Below, piece by piece: positions 1 to 4,931 of a stretch of DNA of 5,195 bases. A model generated the notes under the pieces. The model did not search any database. It saw only the letters and a list, made by a program, of their open reading frames with translations, and was not told the origin of the DNA. Numbering within the stretch: the stretch's first letter is position 1; every line of letters begins with the position of its first letter. This stretch comes from JAGLHV01 sp023132075 [NCBI: bacterium]. Lineage in GTDB: Bacteria > CBDUZB01 > JAGLHV01. Both the position numbers and the translations under genes were made by a program. The stretch lies in the NCBI GenBank assembly GCA_023132075.1, contig JAGLYT010000125.1, positions 1 to 5,195 on the forward strand, in the 5' to 3' direction.

Positions 1-107
1 ATTTATTTTTAGTTTTAAGTTTGGCCGTAGCAATTTATTTTATAGCGCTTTACTTATTGAAAGGAATTAGTAAGCAGGATATAATGGAATTAATGAATAA
101 AAAATAG
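1..107 (+). CDS. C-terminal end of a membrane protein, probably a polysaccharide/lipid flippase (partial)
   Basis: An open frame enters from the left edge (whole codons from base 3) and ends at TAG 105-107, giving 34 residues. The first two thirds are strongly hydrophobic (LFLVLSLAVAIYFIALYLL) and form one transmembrane helix. A short polar tail follows, with GISKQDIMELMNKK at the end. A last helix followed by a tail of the type G-[IL]-[ST]-K-x-D-[IL]-x-x-[LM] resembles the ends of MOP-superfamily flippases (Wzx or MurJ type), which move lipid-linked sugars across the inner membrane. The position directly upstream of lpxK and an O-antigen ligase suits such a role. Only the tail is visible, so the family call is an inference; an ABC transporter or another membrane protein is possible. 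The stop touches the likely true start region of lpxK, suggesting one operon. Confidence 0.5.
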   Translation, partial: LFLVLSLAVAIYFIALYLLKGISKQDIMELMNKK

Positions 108-190
108 AAAAATATTTTTTTGATTTATTTTGGCAAAAAGAAAAAAGTATATTTAATTTTTTTCTTTTTTTACCTTTATGGTTTCTGTCT

Positions 191-1255
191 TTGTTTTACG
201 GTGCTTTGGTAAAAGTGAGACTTTTTTTGTATAAAGCAGGTGTTTTTAAAAAGAAAAAGATAAAGTGTCTGGTAATTTCCGTGGGTAATATTGTTGTTGG
301 CGGTGTGGGTAAAACCCCGGCAGTAATGATGTTGGTGCGTATGTTTAGCCGGCAGGGGAAGAGGGTTGCAATATTAAGCAGGGGATATAAGAGTGGTTTT
401 TCCCGGTCGAAGAGTAAATCGAAGAAAGAAAAGAAAAATTTTCTGGTAGTTAGTGACGGCAAAAATATTATCTCTGATTCTCTCCAGTCCGGGGATGAAC
501 CTTATCTTTTAGCCGAAGCTTGTAGGAGTGTTCCGGTCATTATAGGGAAGGACAGATATGTTAGTGGGAAGTATGCTTTGGAAGAATATAGCAGCCAGGT
601 GCTTGTTCTGGACGATGCTTTTCAGCATCTGCCTTTGCATCGGGATTTAGATATTGTGATAATAGATGCCTTGCTTCCTTTCAGTAACGGGTATCTTCTT
701 CCCCGGGGAGGGTTAAGGGAGTATCCTTCCGGATTGAAAAGGGGGGATGTTTTTTTTATTACCCATACTGACCAGGTAAAGAAAGAAATATTGGAAAATA
801 CTATTGCTCAATTAAAGAAAATTAATCCGCATGCAGCAATAGTAAAAACTTTGCATCAACCGGTGGGAGTGTTATCTCTGGATTCTAAGCGAAGGGTAGA
901 GCAGGTAGACTTTCTTAAAGGAAAAGAAATATTAGCCTTGTGTAGTATTGGAAATCCTTTATCTTTTCGAAAAACACTGGAATCATTAGAGGCAAATATT
1001 GTTGATTTTATAAGTTTTTCCGATCATTATGTTTATGAAAAAAAACAGCTCGAAAAAATTTTAAAAGGAAGGGAGAACGGGATTATTGTAACCACCCAAA
1101 AGGATGAGGGAAAAATAAAACAACTTAAGCTGGATGAGAAATTAAAAGCAAATATTTTTGCTTTAGTAATTGAGTTGAAAACTATTGGTAATGAGGGAAA
1201 TTGGGATAAAAAAATACAGGAAAAAATGCAAAATTTTCTTGATAAGGATAAATAA
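191..1255 (+). CDS. lpxK: Tetraacyldisaccharide 4'-kinase (lipid A 4'-kinase LpxK)
   Basis: LpxK transfers the ATP gamma-phosphate to the 4' position of the tetraacyldisaccharide 1-phosphate, forming lipid IVA at the cytoplasmic face of the inner membrane. Numbering from TTG 191 (354 residues), the Walker A loop is VGNIVVGGVGKTP (31-43). LSRGY is at 62-66, GDEP at 101-104 (D102 matches the catalytic D99 of Aquifex LpxK), DDAFQH at 141-146, LLPRGGLRE at 169-177, SIGNP at 252-256, FSDHYVY at 276-282 (H279 matches Aquifex H261) and TTQKD at 301-305. A K/S-rich basic insert lies at about 71-83. TTG 191 is the first recognised-type start in the frame but lacks a Shine-Dalgarno. Conserved LpxK residues (including LPLWFLS) are encoded upstream, so the true start is probably near the ATA at 104, giving about 383 residues. 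The stop overlaps the next start by one base (TAATG). The family call is very secure; the start is not. Confidence 0.95.
   Translation: MFYGALVKVRLFLYKAGVFKKKKIKCLVISVGNIVVGGVGKTPAVMMLVRMFSRQGKRVAILSRGYKSGFSRSKSKSKKEKKNFLVVSDGKNIISDSLQSGDEPYLLAEACRSVPVIIGKDRYVSGKYALEEYSSQVLVLDDAFQHLPLHRDLDIVIIDALLPFSNGYLLPRGGLREYPSGLKRGDVFFITHTDQVKKEILENTIAQLKKINPHAAIVKTLHQPVGVLSLDSKRRVEQVDFLKGKEILALCSIGNPLSFRKTLESLEANIVDFISFSDHYVYEKKQLEKILKGRENGIIVTTQKDEGKIKQLKLDEKLKANIFALVIELKTIGNEGNWDKKIQEKMQNFLDKDK
1244..1248 (+). promoter_or_regulatory. Ribosome binding site of the glycosyltransferase gene
   Basis: AAGGA sits six bases before ATG 1255, inside the last codons of lpxK. Together with the TAATG stop/start overlap it points to translational coupling of the two genes. 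Confidence 0.7.
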
Positions 1256-2034
1256 TGAGTAATTTGAATAAAAAAAAATGCCGGATTTCTGCTTTGATTA
1301 TCACTAAAAATGAAGAAAAAAATATAGAAAGGTGCTTACAAAGTTTAGGCTGGCTTGATGAAATTATAATTCTTGACTCACAGAGTGAAGACAAGACGGT
1401 AGAAATTGCAAGAGGTTATACCGATAAGGTTTTTTCTGTTCAATGGCAGGGGTTTGCTAAAACAAAAAATATGGGAATTGAAAAAACAAGCGGAGAATGG
1501 ATTTTATGGATTGATGCTGATGAAGAGGTTTCTTCTTCTTTAGCGGAGGAAATGCATAATGCGATAAATCGGGACGGAGTTAACGGGTTTTATATTTTGA
1601 GACAGTCACAATTTTTAGGCAGATGGATAAAACATTGCGGATGGTATCCGGATTACGTATTAAGGTTGTTTAGAAAAGATGAAGGCAGGTTTGACGAAAG
1701 CAAACGGGTTCACGAAAGTATAATTTTAAACGGAAAATCAGCATATTTAAAAAATATTTTGTTCCATCGTCCGTATTTAGGTTTGAAAGATTATTTTAAT
1801 AAAGTCAATCGCTATACGAGTTTGTCTGCTGATGAAATGTGGGATAAAAATAAAAGGGCAAAATGGTATCATTTTTTTGTTTATCCGTTTATTGTTTTTT
1901 TTAAAAAATATATTTTTAAATTAGGAATATTAGATGGGCTGGAAGGATTTATTTTATGTGTTTTAAATGTTTTTTATGTCTTCAGTAAATATACAAAATT
2001 ATGGTGGAAAGAAAATGAAACAGATAGAAATTGA
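1255..2034 (+). CDS. Family 2 glycosyltransferase, WaaE/KdtX-like (LPS core)
   Basis: This 259-residue protein is an inverting GT-A-fold glycosyltransferase that should move a sugar from a nucleotide donor to a growing LPS core or other glycolipid at the cytosolic membrane face. The N-terminal strand and loop ISALIITKNEEKNIERCL (11-28) are typical of GT2. IILDSQSEDKT (38-48) forms the nucleotide-binding region, and WIDADEE (85-91) holds the metal-binding DxD-type motif. RVHE at 151-154 is shared with WaaE/KdtX beta-1,4-glucosyltransferases. The C-terminal part (about 204-246) is hydrophobic and aromatic-rich and probably sits against the membrane. Length matches the WaaE family (about 250-260). 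ATG 1255 has a good Shine-Dalgarno (AAGGA, 1244-1248), overlaps the lpxK stop by one base, and the 3' end overlaps the next gene by 20 bases. The fold and class are secure; donor and acceptor sugars cannot be read from the sequence. Confidence 0.88.
   Translation: MSNLNKKKCRISALIITKNEEKNIERCLQSLGWLDEIIILDSQSEDKTVEIARGYTDKVFSVQWQGFAKTKNMGIEKTSGEWILWIDADEEVSSSLAEEMHNAINRDGVNGFYILRQSQFLGRWIKHCGWYPDYVLRLFRKDEGRFDESKRVHESIILNGKSAYLKNILFHRPYLGLKDYFNKVNRYTSLSADEMWDKNKRAKWYHFFVYPFIVFFKKYIFKLGILDGLEGFILCVLNVFYVFSKYTKLWWKENETDRN
2006..2011 (+). promoter_or_regulatory. Ribosome binding site deciding the ligase-phosphatase start
   Basis: GGAAAG precedes ATG 2015 with GGA ending six bases before the start. 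The earlier in-frame ATG at 1967 has its nearest purine-rich stretch (GGAAGGA, 1941-1947) about 19 bases away, too far to serve it. Starting at 2015 also removes 16 residues that precede the natural N-terminus of the ligase. Confidence 0.6.
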
Positions 2035-3943
2035 AAATCGGCTGGATAAAGTAATATATGGTGGGTTAATTTTTTTGGCAGCGGTACTTCCCTTGCCCAT
2101 ACCTTGTATTAGCATCGTATCGGTTGTTTTACTATCAGCCTGGGTATGCAGAATGATTTTAACTAAAGGGGAAGGATTTAAGGCTTCGTCATTAATGATT
2201 CCTATATTTATTTTTTTAGGGATAACCTTTTTGTCTGTTGTTTTTTCCATCGATCTTGTAAGAAGCATTAAAGGGTTAAAGAGAGAATTATGGGTTTTGA
2301 TGTTTTTTTTGATGATTAGTAGTGTAAAAGATATTAAGCAATTAAAGAAAATGATTAAGTGGTTTGTTTTAGGAACATTTATTGTTTCTTTATTTGCTAT
2401 TTTTCAGTATATTCTGGGAATCAATCGTGTTGCGGATAAAATAGATGTTCCTTTTAAAATATTGTCTTGTTTGCCGAAAAAGATACTTCGGTTTTTAAGT
2501 TTGTATGACCAGAGGGTAACCGGCAGTCGTGATCATCCCATTAGTTTTGCCGAAGGATTAAGCATGGCTGGAATTTTAATCAGCAGCCTTTTTTTATTTG
2601 CTAAGGTTCATAAAAGAAAGAAAATATATTTAGGATTATGTCTATCGGTTTTATCCTTGAGTTTAATTTTTACTTATTCCCGTGGTGCATGGTTAGGAGC
2701 AATAGCGGGTTTGGTTTTTATTGAAATAATAGGAATTAGAAGTTTTTTCCCCTCCTCTTCCAGAATAAAAAAGATTTTATTGCCGGCAACACTAATTATG
2801 TTGATTTTTATTGTTTTTATATCCAGCGGGATAGCTTTTTTTAGAGGAGAAGCCAAATATTCAGCTTTCAGCAGGGCAAAGAATTTTTGTGATTCGGAGA
2901 GGATTTATATGTGGAAGAGCGGTTGGGAAATGTTTAAAGATTATCCTGTCATAGGGATTGGTTTGAAAAATGTTTCTTTGCTTTATCCTGCCTATAAAAA
3001 TCCTGCAGCAATTGTAGAAAGCCAGGGGCATTTACATAATAATTTTATTCAGATTGCCGCAGAGCGGGGAATATTGGGTTTGGCAGCATTTATAATTTTG
3101 TTGGGGGCATGTTTGAAAAAAGGTTTTGGTGTATACTTGAGAATATCCGAAACTAAAAGGTATGAAAAAGCGGTAGTTCTGGGTTGTTTGGGGGCAGTGG
3201 TAGCTTTTATTGTTTCGGGTTTAACGGAATATAACTATGGTGATTCGGAAATATTAGGGTTGTTTTGGTTTATGATGGGGATAATAGTTATAATTGGCAA
3301 TCAGGAACAATTACCGGCTCGAATGAGCGGTAGAAAAGAGAATAATAAAAAAACCGGGGTATTTCTGGATAGGGATGGAACGATTAATCAGGAAGGGGGG
3401 TATATTAATCATCAGGACAGGTTTAAGCTACTACCTCGTACGGCAGAAGCAATTAAGTTATTAAATCAGGAAGGAATTAAGATTATGGTGGCTACCAACC
3501 AGGCAGGTGTAGCCAGAGGTTATTTTAAAGAGAAAATGGTTAATGTTGTTCATCAAAAAATGCGTGATTTATTAGCTCAGGAGGGGGCTTATCCGGATGC
3601 TGTTTATTATTGTCCTCATCATCCTGACGTGGGGGAAGGGGATTATAAACTTGATTGTAATTGCCGTAAGCCTAAAACCGGAATGTTAGAAAAAGGAGAA
3701 AAAGAGTTTGGTCTGGATTTAAAACAATCCTTTATTGTGGGGGACAAAATTAGCGATATTAAATGGGGACATAAAGTAGGGGCTAAAAGTGTTATGGTTT
3801 TAACGGGTTATGGAAAGGGCGAGTATCAATACCAGAGGCAGGATTGGGATGAACAGCCGGATTTTATCGCTTCTGATTTATATGAGGCAGTAAAATGGAT
3901 AATAAGACAAATAAACAAGAGGGAAGAAATTGAACGACAATAA
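2015..3943 (+). CDS. Fusion: O-antigen ligase (WaaL/Wzy_C) + D,D-heptose 1,7-bisphosphate phosphatase (GmhB)
   Basis: This 642-residue protein has two parts. Residues 1-430 are a polytopic membrane protein with about 11-12 hydrophobic segments and O-antigen ligase/polymerase motifs: TYSRGAWLG (220-228), a long loop with MWKSGWEMFKDYPVIGIG (299-316), HLHNNFIQIAAERG (339-352) and GLTEYNYGDSE (402-412). Ligases of this type join polymer from an undecaprenyl carrier to lipid A-core on the periplasmic side. After a short polar linker (about 429-446) comes a HAD phosphatase: DRDGT (D452 nucleophile, D454), ATNQAGVARG (493-502), zinc ligands C533, H535, C548, C550, then RKP (551-553) and VGDKISD (575-581). 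Distances from D452 to C533 (81) and to K552 (100) equal those in E. coli GmhB. That domain removes the 7-phosphate of heptose 1,7-bisphosphate in the cytosol. Start ATG 2015 was chosen over ATG 1967 because only 2015 has a nearby Shine-Dalgarno. No stop or frame break separates the domains. Confidence 0.9.
   Translation: MKQIEIENRLDKVIYGGLIFLAAVLPLPIPCISIVSVVLLSAWVCRMILTKGEGFKASSLMIPIFIFLGITFLSVVFSIDLVRSIKGLKRELWVLMFFLMISSVKDIKQLKKMIKWFVLGTFIVSLFAIFQYILGINRVADKIDVPFKILSCLPKKILRFLSLYDQRVTGSRDHPISFAEGLSMAGILISSLFLFAKVHKRKKIYLGLCLSVLSLSLIFTYSRGAWLGAIAGLVFIEIIGIRSFFPSSSRIKKILLPATLIMLIFIVFISSGIAFFRGEAKYSAFSRAKNFCDSERIYMWKSGWEMFKDYPVIGIGLKNVSLLYPAYKNPAAIVESQGHLHNNFIQIAAERGILGLAAFIILLGACLKKGFGVYLRISETKRYEKAVVLGCLGAVVAFIVSGLTEYNYGDSEILGLFWFMMGIIVIIGNQEQLPARMSGRKENNKKTGVFLDRDGTINQEGGYINHQDRFKLLPRTAEAIKLLNQEGIKIMVATNQAGVARGYFKEKMVNVVHQKMRDLLAQEGAYPDAVYYCPHHPDVGEGDYKLDCNCRKPKTGMLEKGEKEFGLDLKQSFIVGDKISDIKWGHKVGAKSVMVLTGYGKGEYQYQRQDWDEQPDFIASDLYEAVKWIIRQINKREEIERQ
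3323..3943 (+). other. gmhB: GmhB-like phosphatase domain within the fusion protein
   Basis: This marks the part of the fusion that would be a stand-alone gmhB in most genomes (residues 437-642, about 206 residues; E. coli GmhB is about 190). An in-frame ATG at 3323 lies just before the domain and could act as an internal start. The bases ahead of it (CCGGCTCGA) contain no Shine-Dalgarno at a workable distance; the only AGGA is 16-17 bases upstream. The domain carries every catalytic and zinc-binding residue of the family, so it should be active whether it is made as a fusion or separately. Confidence 0.7.
3919..3926 (+). promoter_or_regulatory. Strong ribosome binding site supporting a TTG start
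   Basis: GAGGGAAG ends three bases before TTG 3930, with the GGGA core at about five bases spacing. No ATG or GTG start fits the kinase frame nearby, and the PfkB N-terminal strand begins some 20 residues later, so this site fixes the start at the TTG. It lies inside the 3' end of the upstream gene. Confidence 0.7.
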
Positions 3944-4931
3944 AAGGGAACAATTGAAAAAAATATTAAATAATTTTAATAAAAAGAAGATATTAGTTCT
4001 GGGAGATTTAATCGGCGATGAATATATTTATGGGAAAACTACCCGTATCTCCCGTGAAGCACCTGTTTTAATTTTAAAATTTGAATCGAGAGAGGTTATT
4101 TTAGGCGGGGGAGCAAATTCGGTTAATAATATTTGGTCTTTAGGAGGGAAAGTTTTTCCTGTGGGAGTAGTAGGTAAAGATAATATTGGAAGTAGTTTAT
4201 TGCAAATAATGAAAGATAAAAAAATAAATACAGCAGGTGTTTTTATAGATAAAATAGATCCTACTATTACTAAAACACGGATAATGGCAGGGGGCTATCA
4301 TACGGCAAAGCAGCAGGTTATTCGAGTAGATAAAGAAATAAGCAATAAACTTAGCCGTAGCATAGAGGATAAGATTTTAAATTTTTTAAAAATAAAAATT
4401 CCGCAAATAAATGCTATTTTAATTTCGGACTATGGGGGAGTAGTTACTCCCCGGATAATAAAGTGGTTAATTCCTTATGCTAAGAAGCTAAATAAACCTG
4501 TAGTTGTTGATTCCCGTTTTAGGGTATTGGATTTTAAGGGTGTTTCTTTGGTTACTCCTAATGAAACAGAAGCGGGTCCTTCTTTAGGTATAAAAATTAA
4601 GGATAAACAATCGTTACTTTATGCCGGAGAAAAATTGTTGTCCGATTTAGGTTGTAAGGGGGTTCTAATTACCAGAGGGAAAGAAGGAATGAGTTTGTTT
4701 GAGAAAGATGGAAAAGTGATTCATATACCTATTGTTGGTTCGGATGAGCCGGTAGATGTTACTGGGGCAGGGGATACGGTAGCCAGTTGTATCACTTTGG
4801 CTTTAGCCAGTGGAGCCAGTTTTAGGGATGCGGCTTATTTATCAAACTATGCGGCAGGACAAGTAGTGATGAAGAGAGGAACCGCGGTAGTAACGGTTGG
4901 GGAAATTTCAGATTGTCTGGAAAGTAACTGA
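3930..4931 (+). CDS. hldA: Heptose 7-phosphate kinase, PfkB family (HldA / HldE domain I type)
   Basis: This 333-residue PfkB/ribokinase-fold kinase probably phosphorylates D-glycero-beta-D-manno-heptose 7-phosphate at C1, producing the substrate of the GmhB domain encoded just upstream. Visible motifs are VLGDLIGDEYIYG (23-35), RISREAPV (39-46; RISPEAPV in E. coli HldE), GGGANSVNN (59-67), PTITKTRI (111-118), SDYGGVVTP (166-174), TPNETEA (209-215) and DVTGAGDT (276-283), with D282 as catalytic base. It stops where HldE domain I ends, so the nucleotidyltransferase must be encoded elsewhere. Differences from E. coli HldE include a five-residue longer GGYHTAK stretch (121-127) and DSRFR (194-198) in place of DPKG. 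The start is TTG 3930, supported by a strong Shine-Dalgarno (GAGGGAAG, 3919-3926), with a 14-base overlap with the upstream gene. Kinase fold is certain; the heptose substrate is likely from context, and another sugar phosphate is possible. Confidence 0.88.
   Translation: MNDNKREQLKKILNNFNKKKILVLGDLIGDEYIYGKTTRISREAPVLILKFESREVILGGGANSVNNIWSLGGKVFPVGVVGKDNIGSSLLQIMKDKKINTAGVFIDKIDPTITKTRIMAGGYHTAKQQVIRVDKEISNKLSRSIEDKILNFLKIKIPQINAILISDYGGVVTPRIIKWLIPYAKKLNKPVVVDSRFRVLDFKGVSLVTPNETEAGPSLGIKIKDKQSLLYAGEKLLSDLGCKGVLITRGKEGMSLFEKDGKVIHIPIVGSDEPVDVTGAGDTVASCITLALASGASFRDAAYLSNYAAGQVVMKRGTAVVTVGEISDCLESN

What the first reader, a model, noticed from the sequence alone, without database searches (positions are those of the whole stretch)
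2015..3943. O-antigen ligase fused in frame to a GmhB heptose-bisphosphate phosphatase
Seen: one uninterrupted frame encodes a polytopic ligase (TYSRGAWLG, HLHNNFIQ, GLTEYNYGDSE) followed by a GmhB domain with DRDGT, the C-x-H / C-x-C zinc site and VGDKISD, at the same nucleophile-to-zinc spacing as E. coli GmhB. Known: these are normally separate proteins; WaaL acts on the periplasmic side and GmhB in the cytosol. Inference: the ligase C-terminus would be cytosolic, so the fusion is topologically possible and would tether a heptose precursor enzyme to the membrane, perhaps as a scaffold that keeps core-sugar supply close to the LPS machinery. I do not recall this pairing as a described architecture, but I cannot search for it.
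Basis: partly seen in the sequence, partly recalled or inferred. Interest (0 to 1): 0.72.

Follow-up and report, generated by a model that had tools for sequence, protein, structure and literature searches.

The report
Surface-sugar ligase fused to heptose phosphatase
One gene in an uncultured bacterium joins the membrane enzyme that attaches surface sugar chains to a cell-interior enzyme that makes a building block of the same coat, and the same joined gene turns up in a second, distant group of bacteria, so it is real and not an assembly slip, though what the joining is for is unknown.

Summary
Window 2015-3943 is one open frame: a polytopic Wzy_C (WaaL-type) ligase, a ~21-residue linker, and a complete GmhB heptose-bisphosphate phosphatase. 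Ligase residues matching E. coli WaaL R215/R288/H338, and the GmhB nucleophile and zinc motifs, are present. The junction is open in the one close relative that carries the locus, and the same fusion occurs in 4 of 5 held genomes of another phylum, downstream of LpxK. Of 399 genomes searched with the junction, 6 show it. The fifth genome of that phylum has the two as neighbouring genes overlapping by ATGA with a strong ribosome site, the expected unfused state. The linker changes like coding sequence and shares no in-frame start codon. The fused GmhB is the only GmhB match in 5 of the 6 genomes. Loop charges put GmhB in the cytosol. Fusions of LPS-operon neighbours occur elsewhere too (heptosyltransferase-GmhB, glycosyltransferase-ligase), so I call it a new variant of a known kind. 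Trees do not decide between one fusion and two.

The parts
2015..3943 (+). Fused gene, 642 aa: Wzy_C/WaaL-type ligase plus GmhB phosphatase
   Evidence: start 2015 has an upstream GGTGGAAAG
2015..3295 (+). Ligase part, residues 1-427, about 12 membrane helices (hand-set layout) and two long loops taken as periplasmic (residues ~134-177 and ~277-352)
   Evidence: Wzy_C match; WaaL structure 7tpg profile match E 6.7e-9; loop charges; a simple hydropathy scan found 10 helices here
2681..3037 (+). Ligase functional residues R223 (2681-2683), R296 (2900-2902), H341 (3035-3037), matching E. coli WaaL R215, R288, H338
   Evidence: conserved in 6 of 6 rows and in L034; E. coli residues from PMC3643930, passages read
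3296..3358 (+). Linker, residues 428-448, charged, no conserved internal start codon
3359..3940 (+). GmhB part, residues 449-642
3368..3376 (+). DRD nucleophile and acid/base motif (D452, D454)
   Evidence: aligned with E. coli GmhB 2gmw; roles recalled
3611..3664 (+). Zinc motif C533-x-H535 ... C548-x-C550
   Evidence: same ungapped spacing as 2gmw and 3l8e; zinc role recalled
191..1255 (+). LpxK (lipid A 4'-kinase), same strand and gene run; coding similarity extends upstream to about 101
1255..2034 (+). Family 2 glycosyltransferase, overlaps the fusion start by 20 bases
3930..4931 (+). RfaE1 / HldE kinase-domain homologue, which would make the GmhB substrate; TTG start with GAGGGAAG upstream, overlaps the fusion end
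   Evidence: TIGR02198 321 bits against a cut-off of 345

Best explanation
A genuine bifunctional inner-membrane protein of the LPS pathway. The N-terminal part is a WaaL-type polytopic ligase whose active site faces the periplasm. Its last helix ends in the cytosol, where a short charged linker carries a working GmhB domain that removes the 7-phosphate of heptose 1,7-bisphosphate made by the kinase encoded next (RfaE1). The gene arose when neighbouring, translationally coupled genes (ligase then gmhB) in a lipid A / inner-core operon lost the stop between them. Shown here by computation: one frame, both sets of functional residues, conservation in two phyla, an unfused neighbour pair in a relative. 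Inferred: the enzyme activities, cytosolic GmhB, and that fusion mainly fixes the two activities in one membrane-bound protein with no direct hand-over of substrate, because the two reactions lie many steps and one membrane apart.
For: Single open frame with both domains. Junction kept in L034. Fusion in 4 of 4 family-f198 genomes of another phylum. G386 of that phylum has the two genes apart with ATGA overlap and AGGAGGG. Linker pN below pS in 5 of 5 genome pairs (four of them among the same four f198 genomes), with in-frame indels. No start codon shared across the linker; in G240, G387 and G388 none lies between the last helix and the first phosphatase strand. GmhB motifs match the solved enzyme; ligase R/R/H conserved in 6 of 6. 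Only one GmhB match in G000 and G001 at E 0.001 and in G240, G368 and G387 at E 1e-15, so the fused domain is the pathway's likely GmhB; GmhA-like (below its cut-off) and RfaE2 (above its cut-off) genes are present in all 6 fused genomes. K/R in short loops 15-24 inside against 1-3 outside.
Against: No protein or activity data. G002, same genus and 97% complete, has GmhA-like and RfaE2 genes but no GmhB match, no fusion and no close copy of this operon's RfaE1, only a 48% match: assembly gap or loss. L034's own ligase reading is broken by a frame shift. RfaE1 lies beside the fusion only in the window, L034 and, past a 77-codon ORF, G368; it is three genes on in G387 and elsewhere in G240 and G388. 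The GmhB and RfaE1 equivalog scores fall short of NCBIfam's cut-offs. Wzy_C also covers enzymes other than the core ligase. The hydropathy scan gave 7-11 helices per protein, not 12, and the structure prediction failed (mean pLDDT 35, two-row alignment).
Confidence: 0.82

Rival explanations
1. The two domains are translated or processed separately: GmhB is made from an internal start or released by proteolysis, and the fused frame matters little.
For: ATG 3323 (residue 437) lies 11 codons before the GVFLDRDGT strand; G001 has an in-frame TTG in the linker and G368 an in-frame ATG three codons before FMDRDGT.
Against: ATG 3323 has no ribosome site at proper spacing and is GTA in G001; G001's TTG is TTA in the window; G240, G387 and G388 have no start codon in the linker. 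Proteolysis cannot be tested from sequence.
Confidence: 0.1
2. The fusion is an assembly or sequencing artefact (lost stop or indel) in this genome.
For: Fragmented draft genome, 389 contigs; the window is a whole 5195-base contig.
Against: Junction open in another genome of the genus and in four genomes of another phylum, with codon-like change in the linker.
Confidence: 0.01
3. A selected scaffold: GmhB is held at the inner membrane so that heptose supply is coupled in place or amount to core assembly and O-chain ligation.
For: Both domains are under stronger constraint than the linker, not decaying; the fusion is retained in two phyla; other core-pathway fusions exist.
Against: The ligase and heptose steps are far apart in the pathway; linker sequence and length are not conserved between phyla; neighbours fuse in several other combinations, as expected from neutral operon fusion.
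Confidence: 0.2
4. The membrane part is an O-antigen polymerase (Wzy) or another Wzy_C enzyme rather than the core ligase.
For: Pfam Wzy_C covers ligases and protein O-glycosylation enzymes, which BLAST cannot tell apart (PMC3643930 passages); that it also covers some polymerases is recalled; G000 has three more matches to the ligase part.
Against: Sits among lipid A / inner core genes; the only solved match is 7tpg, deposited as a polysaccharide polymerase/ligase and known to me as WaaL; WaaL R/R/H residues kept; no PglL-specific Pfam model (PF15864) among the listed matches.
Confidence: 0.2

Closest known systems
WaaL O-antigen ligase (PF04932; structure 7tpg/7tpj)
   Same: Profile match E 6.7e-9, three functional residues and long loop, LPS gene run
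   Different: WaaL as known to me ends after the last helix; here a phosphatase follows
[quoted passage not shown]
   Same: DRDGT, zinc motif and spacing, RKP, GDK-D motifs
   Different: Normally a free ~190 aa protein; here fused to a membrane protein
Heptosyltransferase (GT9)-GmhB fusions in other bacteria (L048, L094, L101)
   Same: GmhB appended to the C-terminus of another LPS core enzyme
   Different: The partner is a heptosyltransferase, not a polytopic periplasm-facing ligase
Glycosyltransferase-ligase fusion (L046, 805 aa)
   Same: Wzy_C ligase fused to another LPS-type enzyme, directly upstream of RfaE1
   Different: The extra domain is N-terminal and a glycosyltransferase
Separate neighbouring ligase and gmhB genes of G386 (L109, L110)
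   Same: Same two genes, same order, related ligase and GmhB sequences
   Different: Stop codon between them; on L109 an ATGA overlap and own ribosome site

Membership tests
Wzy_C / WaaL O-antigen ligase | Pfam PF04932 above the curated cut-off | tested here: met
   90.9 bits against 31.7
Wzy_C / WaaL O-antigen ligase | Residues equivalent to E. coli R215, R288, H338 | tested here: met
   R223, R296, H341, spacing 73 and 45 (E. coli 73 and 50); 6 of 6 rows (PMC3643930 passages)
Wzy_C / WaaL O-antigen ligase | Transfers O-chain to lipid A-core | not testable with these tools
   needs complementation or an in vitro assay
PglL protein O-glycosylation enzymes | PglL_A model PF15864; gene outside LPS loci | tested here: not met
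   no such model listed at E up to 0.001; gene lies among LPS genes
GmhB | HAD DxD nucleophile, Zn C-x-H/C-x-C, GDK-D | tested here: met
   alignment to 2gmw and 3l8e
GmhB | NCBIfam PRK08942 equivalog cut-off (178 bits) | tested here: inconclusive
   175.2 bits for the window; 172.7-176.5 for the four f198 fusions; 180 for the free G386 copy
GmhB | 7-phosphatase activity on the beta-anomer bisphosphate | not testable with these tools
   a beta-type RfaE1 homologue, below its cut-off, is encoded next
GmhB operon-neighbour fusions (kind filed under) | GmhB in one frame with another LPS core enzyme, conserved in more than one genome | tested here: met
   6 of 399 genomes, two phyla, for the ligase pairing

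The most novel reading that the evidence does not exclude
A membrane-anchored heptose-precursor phosphatase on the cytosolic end of the O-antigen ligase physically links an early step of inner-core sugar supply to the last step of LPS assembly, across the membrane, as a selected coordinating device that arose twice.
Probability: 0.15. Interest if true: 0.7.

Novelty: new variant of a known kind. Interest (0 to 1): 0.45.

Why it matters
It is a conserved enzyme pairing, not found described in the papers searched, that spans both faces of the inner membrane, in two sparsely sampled phyla. It gives a natural system, with fused and unfused relatives, for asking whether LPS precursor enzymes gain anything from being held at the membrane. 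It also warns annotation pipelines that GmhB may sit inside an O-antigen ligase protein in genomes that look GmhB-less.

Tried and rejected
Assembly artefact: rejected. Internal start at 3323: not conserved and no ribosome site. Ligases with long C-terminal extensions: the three I read out (L134, L135, L138) end in what I take by eye, without a search, to be TPR-like repeats, not GmhB. Other long GmhB frames: the four scanned were GT9-GmhB (three) and GmhB-DUF3108 (one); several more (for example in L093, L095, L096, L097) were not scanned with Pfam, but no ORF outside the six fused genes matched both my ligase and GmhB queries at E 1e-6 in the loci held. More fusions in three further phyla with similar GmhB: none among the matches in 3, 9 and 4 genomes. 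One fusion or two: AU tests of the fused rows as one clade gave p 0.159 (ligase), 0.221 (GmhB), 0.347 (both); not decided. AlphaFold with a two-row alignment: mean pLDDT 35, unusable, so no fold search was run. Organism name: not found; the relative's record is titled only 'bacterium isolate RS_2_16' and the paper search for it gave nothing. Repeats at the window's right end: none found. Limits: the match list was cut off near E 2.6e-32, at most five candidates per genome were scored there, and few genomes per family were sampled, so rarer or more divergent fusions can have been missed.
Full report
The observation. Window 2015-3943 holds one stop-free frame on the + strand. Pfam finds Wzy_C (E 8.7e-26, cut-off passed) in the first part and HAD hydrolase families in the last; NCBIfam places the C-terminal ~180 residues nearest to GmhB (PRK08942, E 9.5e-52, 175.2 bits against a cut-off of 178) and above cut-off in the wider histidinol-phosphatase and HAD-IIIA domain models. 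ATG 2015 has GGTGGAAAG just upstream; the earlier ATG 1967 overlaps the glycosyltransferase gene and has none that I can see. The neighbours are LpxK, a family 2 glycosyltransferase and an RfaE1/HldE kinase homologue, all on the same strand and overlapping or abutting.

Both halves look intact. A profile of five ligase parts matches only one solved sequence at E up to 1, 7tpg, deposited as a polysaccharide polymerase/ligase and known to me as WaaL (E 6.7e-9). A paper on the family (PMC3643930, passages read) names E. coli WaaL R215, R288 and H338 as functionally important; the window has R223, R296 and H341 at spacing 73 and 45 (E. coli 73 and 50), conserved in 6 of 6 aligned proteins and in L034. 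The same passages say that PF04932 holds both O-antigen ligases and PglL enzymes, and that the PglL genes found lie outside LPS loci; this gene lies among LPS genes.

Is the join real? The genome is a draft of 389 contigs and the window is a whole contig, so I looked for independent copies. Its phylum holds three genomes. G001 (L034, JAGLHV010000053.1) has the same gene order with the junction open, 74% identical over residues 67-638 and 82% over GmhB; its ligase is interrupted by a frame break in a T run about 100 residues in, far from the junction. G002 (97% complete) has no GmhB match and no fusion, and only a 48%-identical RfaE1, although it has GmhA-like and RfaE2 genes: operon lost or unassembled, I cannot tell.

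A wider search with the junction-spanning stretch over 386 genomes brought two more fused genes, and a search of their phylum (5 genomes) showed the fusion in 4 of 4 genomes of one family (G240, G368, G387, G388; 617-636 aa as the longest frame). Pfam confirms Wzy_C plus a HAD family in all four. An LpxK gene lies upstream in all four, with two genes between in G240, G368 and G387 and one in G388 (in G368 LpxK is cut by the contig end). RfaE1 follows the fusion past a 77-codon ORF in G368, is the third gene on in G387, and is on another contig in G388; G240 shows only a distant RfaE1 elsewhere. In all, 399 distinct genomes were searched with the junction stretch and 6 are fused. Among ORFs of 90 aa or more in the loci held, only these six genes match both ligase and GmhB queries at E 1e-6; these loci include 40 fetched neighbourhoods of GmhB genes and ligase loci from a profile search of 290 genomes.

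The unfused state was found too. The fifth genome of the second phylum, G386, has the ligase and gmhB as neighbouring genes in different frames, on two contigs (two variants; on L110 gmhB is cut by the contig end; the genome is scored 5% contaminated). On L109 they overlap by ATGA and an AGGAGGG sits before the gmhB start. Trees put the window pair, the f198 fusions, G386 and G144 (unfused, the two genes on different contigs) in one group: support 100/99 for the ligase, 89/86 for GmhB (whose bootstrap had not settled), and 98/97 for both together against only four outgroup rows. Within the group the order is weak: GmhB joins G144 to the window pair at 98/76, against a single fused clade, and the joint tree joins G386 to the f198 rows at 54/29. 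Holding all fused rows together is not rejected (p 0.159, 0.221, 0.347), nor is G386 or G144 beside the window pair (p 0.157 and 0.262). So one fusion with later splits and two separate fusions both remain open. The linker is five residues shorter in three of the four f198 proteins and six shorter in G368, which leans to two events but does not prove it.

Is it made as one protein? The linker changes like coding sequence: pN is below pS in 5 of 5 genome pairs, with in-frame length changes (12-18 codons each, four pairs drawn from the same four genomes, so weak; G240/G368 is near saturation with pN 0.557 and pS 0.796). A separate GmhB from a conserved internal start is therefore unlikely. Only one GmhB match was found in G000 and G001 (E up to 0.001) and in G240, G368 and G387 (E up to 1e-15); G388 has a second, distant one (39% identity). 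GmhA (E 2.5e-54 or better, but below the curated cut-off, as in all 8 genomes searched) and RfaE2 (above the cut-off) are present in all six fused genomes.

Topology. A plain hydropathy scan gave 10 helices for the window protein and 7 to 11 for four relatives. I set a 12-helix layout by hand from that scan and from the helices of the (unreliable) AlphaFold model, with both ends inside. On it, short loops assigned to the cytosol carry 15-24 K/R and those assigned outside 1-3, in each of six proteins, the two long loops left out. Cytosolic loops are also longer in total (64-83 against 26 residues), so the density contrast is smaller than the raw count, but it points the same way. The three helices after the large H341 loop, known to me as periplasmic in WaaL, also bring the C-terminus, and so GmhB, inside. 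AlphaFold on the two rows I was allowed gave pLDDT 35 and supports nothing by itself.

How it most likely works. WaaL-type ligation in the periplasm and heptose-bisphosphate dephosphorylation in the cytosol by one polypeptide; in the window the next gene's product would supply the GmhB substrate. The two reactions share no intermediate, so I see no channelling; the simplest history is stop-codon loss between coupled neighbours, tolerated because the ligase C-terminus is cytosolic. GmhB domains are also found fused behind heptosyltransferases (L048, L094, L101), before a DUF3108 domain (L052), and one ligase is fused behind a glycosyltransferase and sits directly before RfaE1 (L046). This favours a general ease of fusion in these operons over a special role of this pair, without excluding one. 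That loss of GmhB alone is partly compensated in H. pylori and E. coli (PMC8204981, passages read) means the fused domain need not be essential.

Known or new. Full-text searches for O-antigen ligase with GmhB and fusion, with heptose bisphosphate phosphatase and fused, GmhB with bifunctional or domain fusion, GmhB with heptosyltransferase, fused, ligase and bifunctional, and ligase with gene fusion and domain architecture listed no paper whose title or abstract start describes this pairing. The first two returned none; of the papers listed by the others (15 of 232, 4 of 4, 1 of 1) I opened one (PMC8204981, passages). Subscription papers and protein databases were not searched. I rate it a new variant of a known kind.

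Noticed in passing
window 101-190: LpxK coding similarity to L034 continues about 30 residues upstream of the first ATG/GTG/TTG (TTG 191); the frame opens after TAA 98-100 with AAA ATA GAA and no usual start codon, where L034 has an ATG start. Non-standard start, or an indel in an A/T-rich stretch.
   Followed up: partly
window 3-107: C-terminal end of another open frame ending at TAG 105-107, looking like the tail of a membrane protein (possibly a polysaccharide flippase, by eye only); in L034 LpxK is preceded instead by an ORF at 2022-2990 that looks by eye like a heptosyltransferase.
   Followed up: no
L046 1011-3428 (-): 805 aa glycosyltransferase (Glycos_transf_1 type) fused in front of a Wzy_C ligase, directly upstream of an RfaE1 gene: another LPS fusion.
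   Followed up: partly
L048 4945-6567, L094 4233-6215, L101 4934-6586: Heptosyltransferase (GT9) fused in front of GmhB.
   Followed up: partly
L052 5203-6567 (-): GmhB followed by a DUF3108 domain in one frame, beside LpxK.
   Followed up: no
G387 contig 63, G368 contig 15, and G240, G388: All four f198 genomes carry a second RfaE2-like gene and a more distant RfaE1-like gene (40-42% identity), hinting at a second heptose pathway; for G240 one search lists only the distant RfaE1.
   Followed up: no
L034 near 5220-5260: Frame break in a run of T within the ligase of the close relative; contingency run or assembly error.
   Followed up: no
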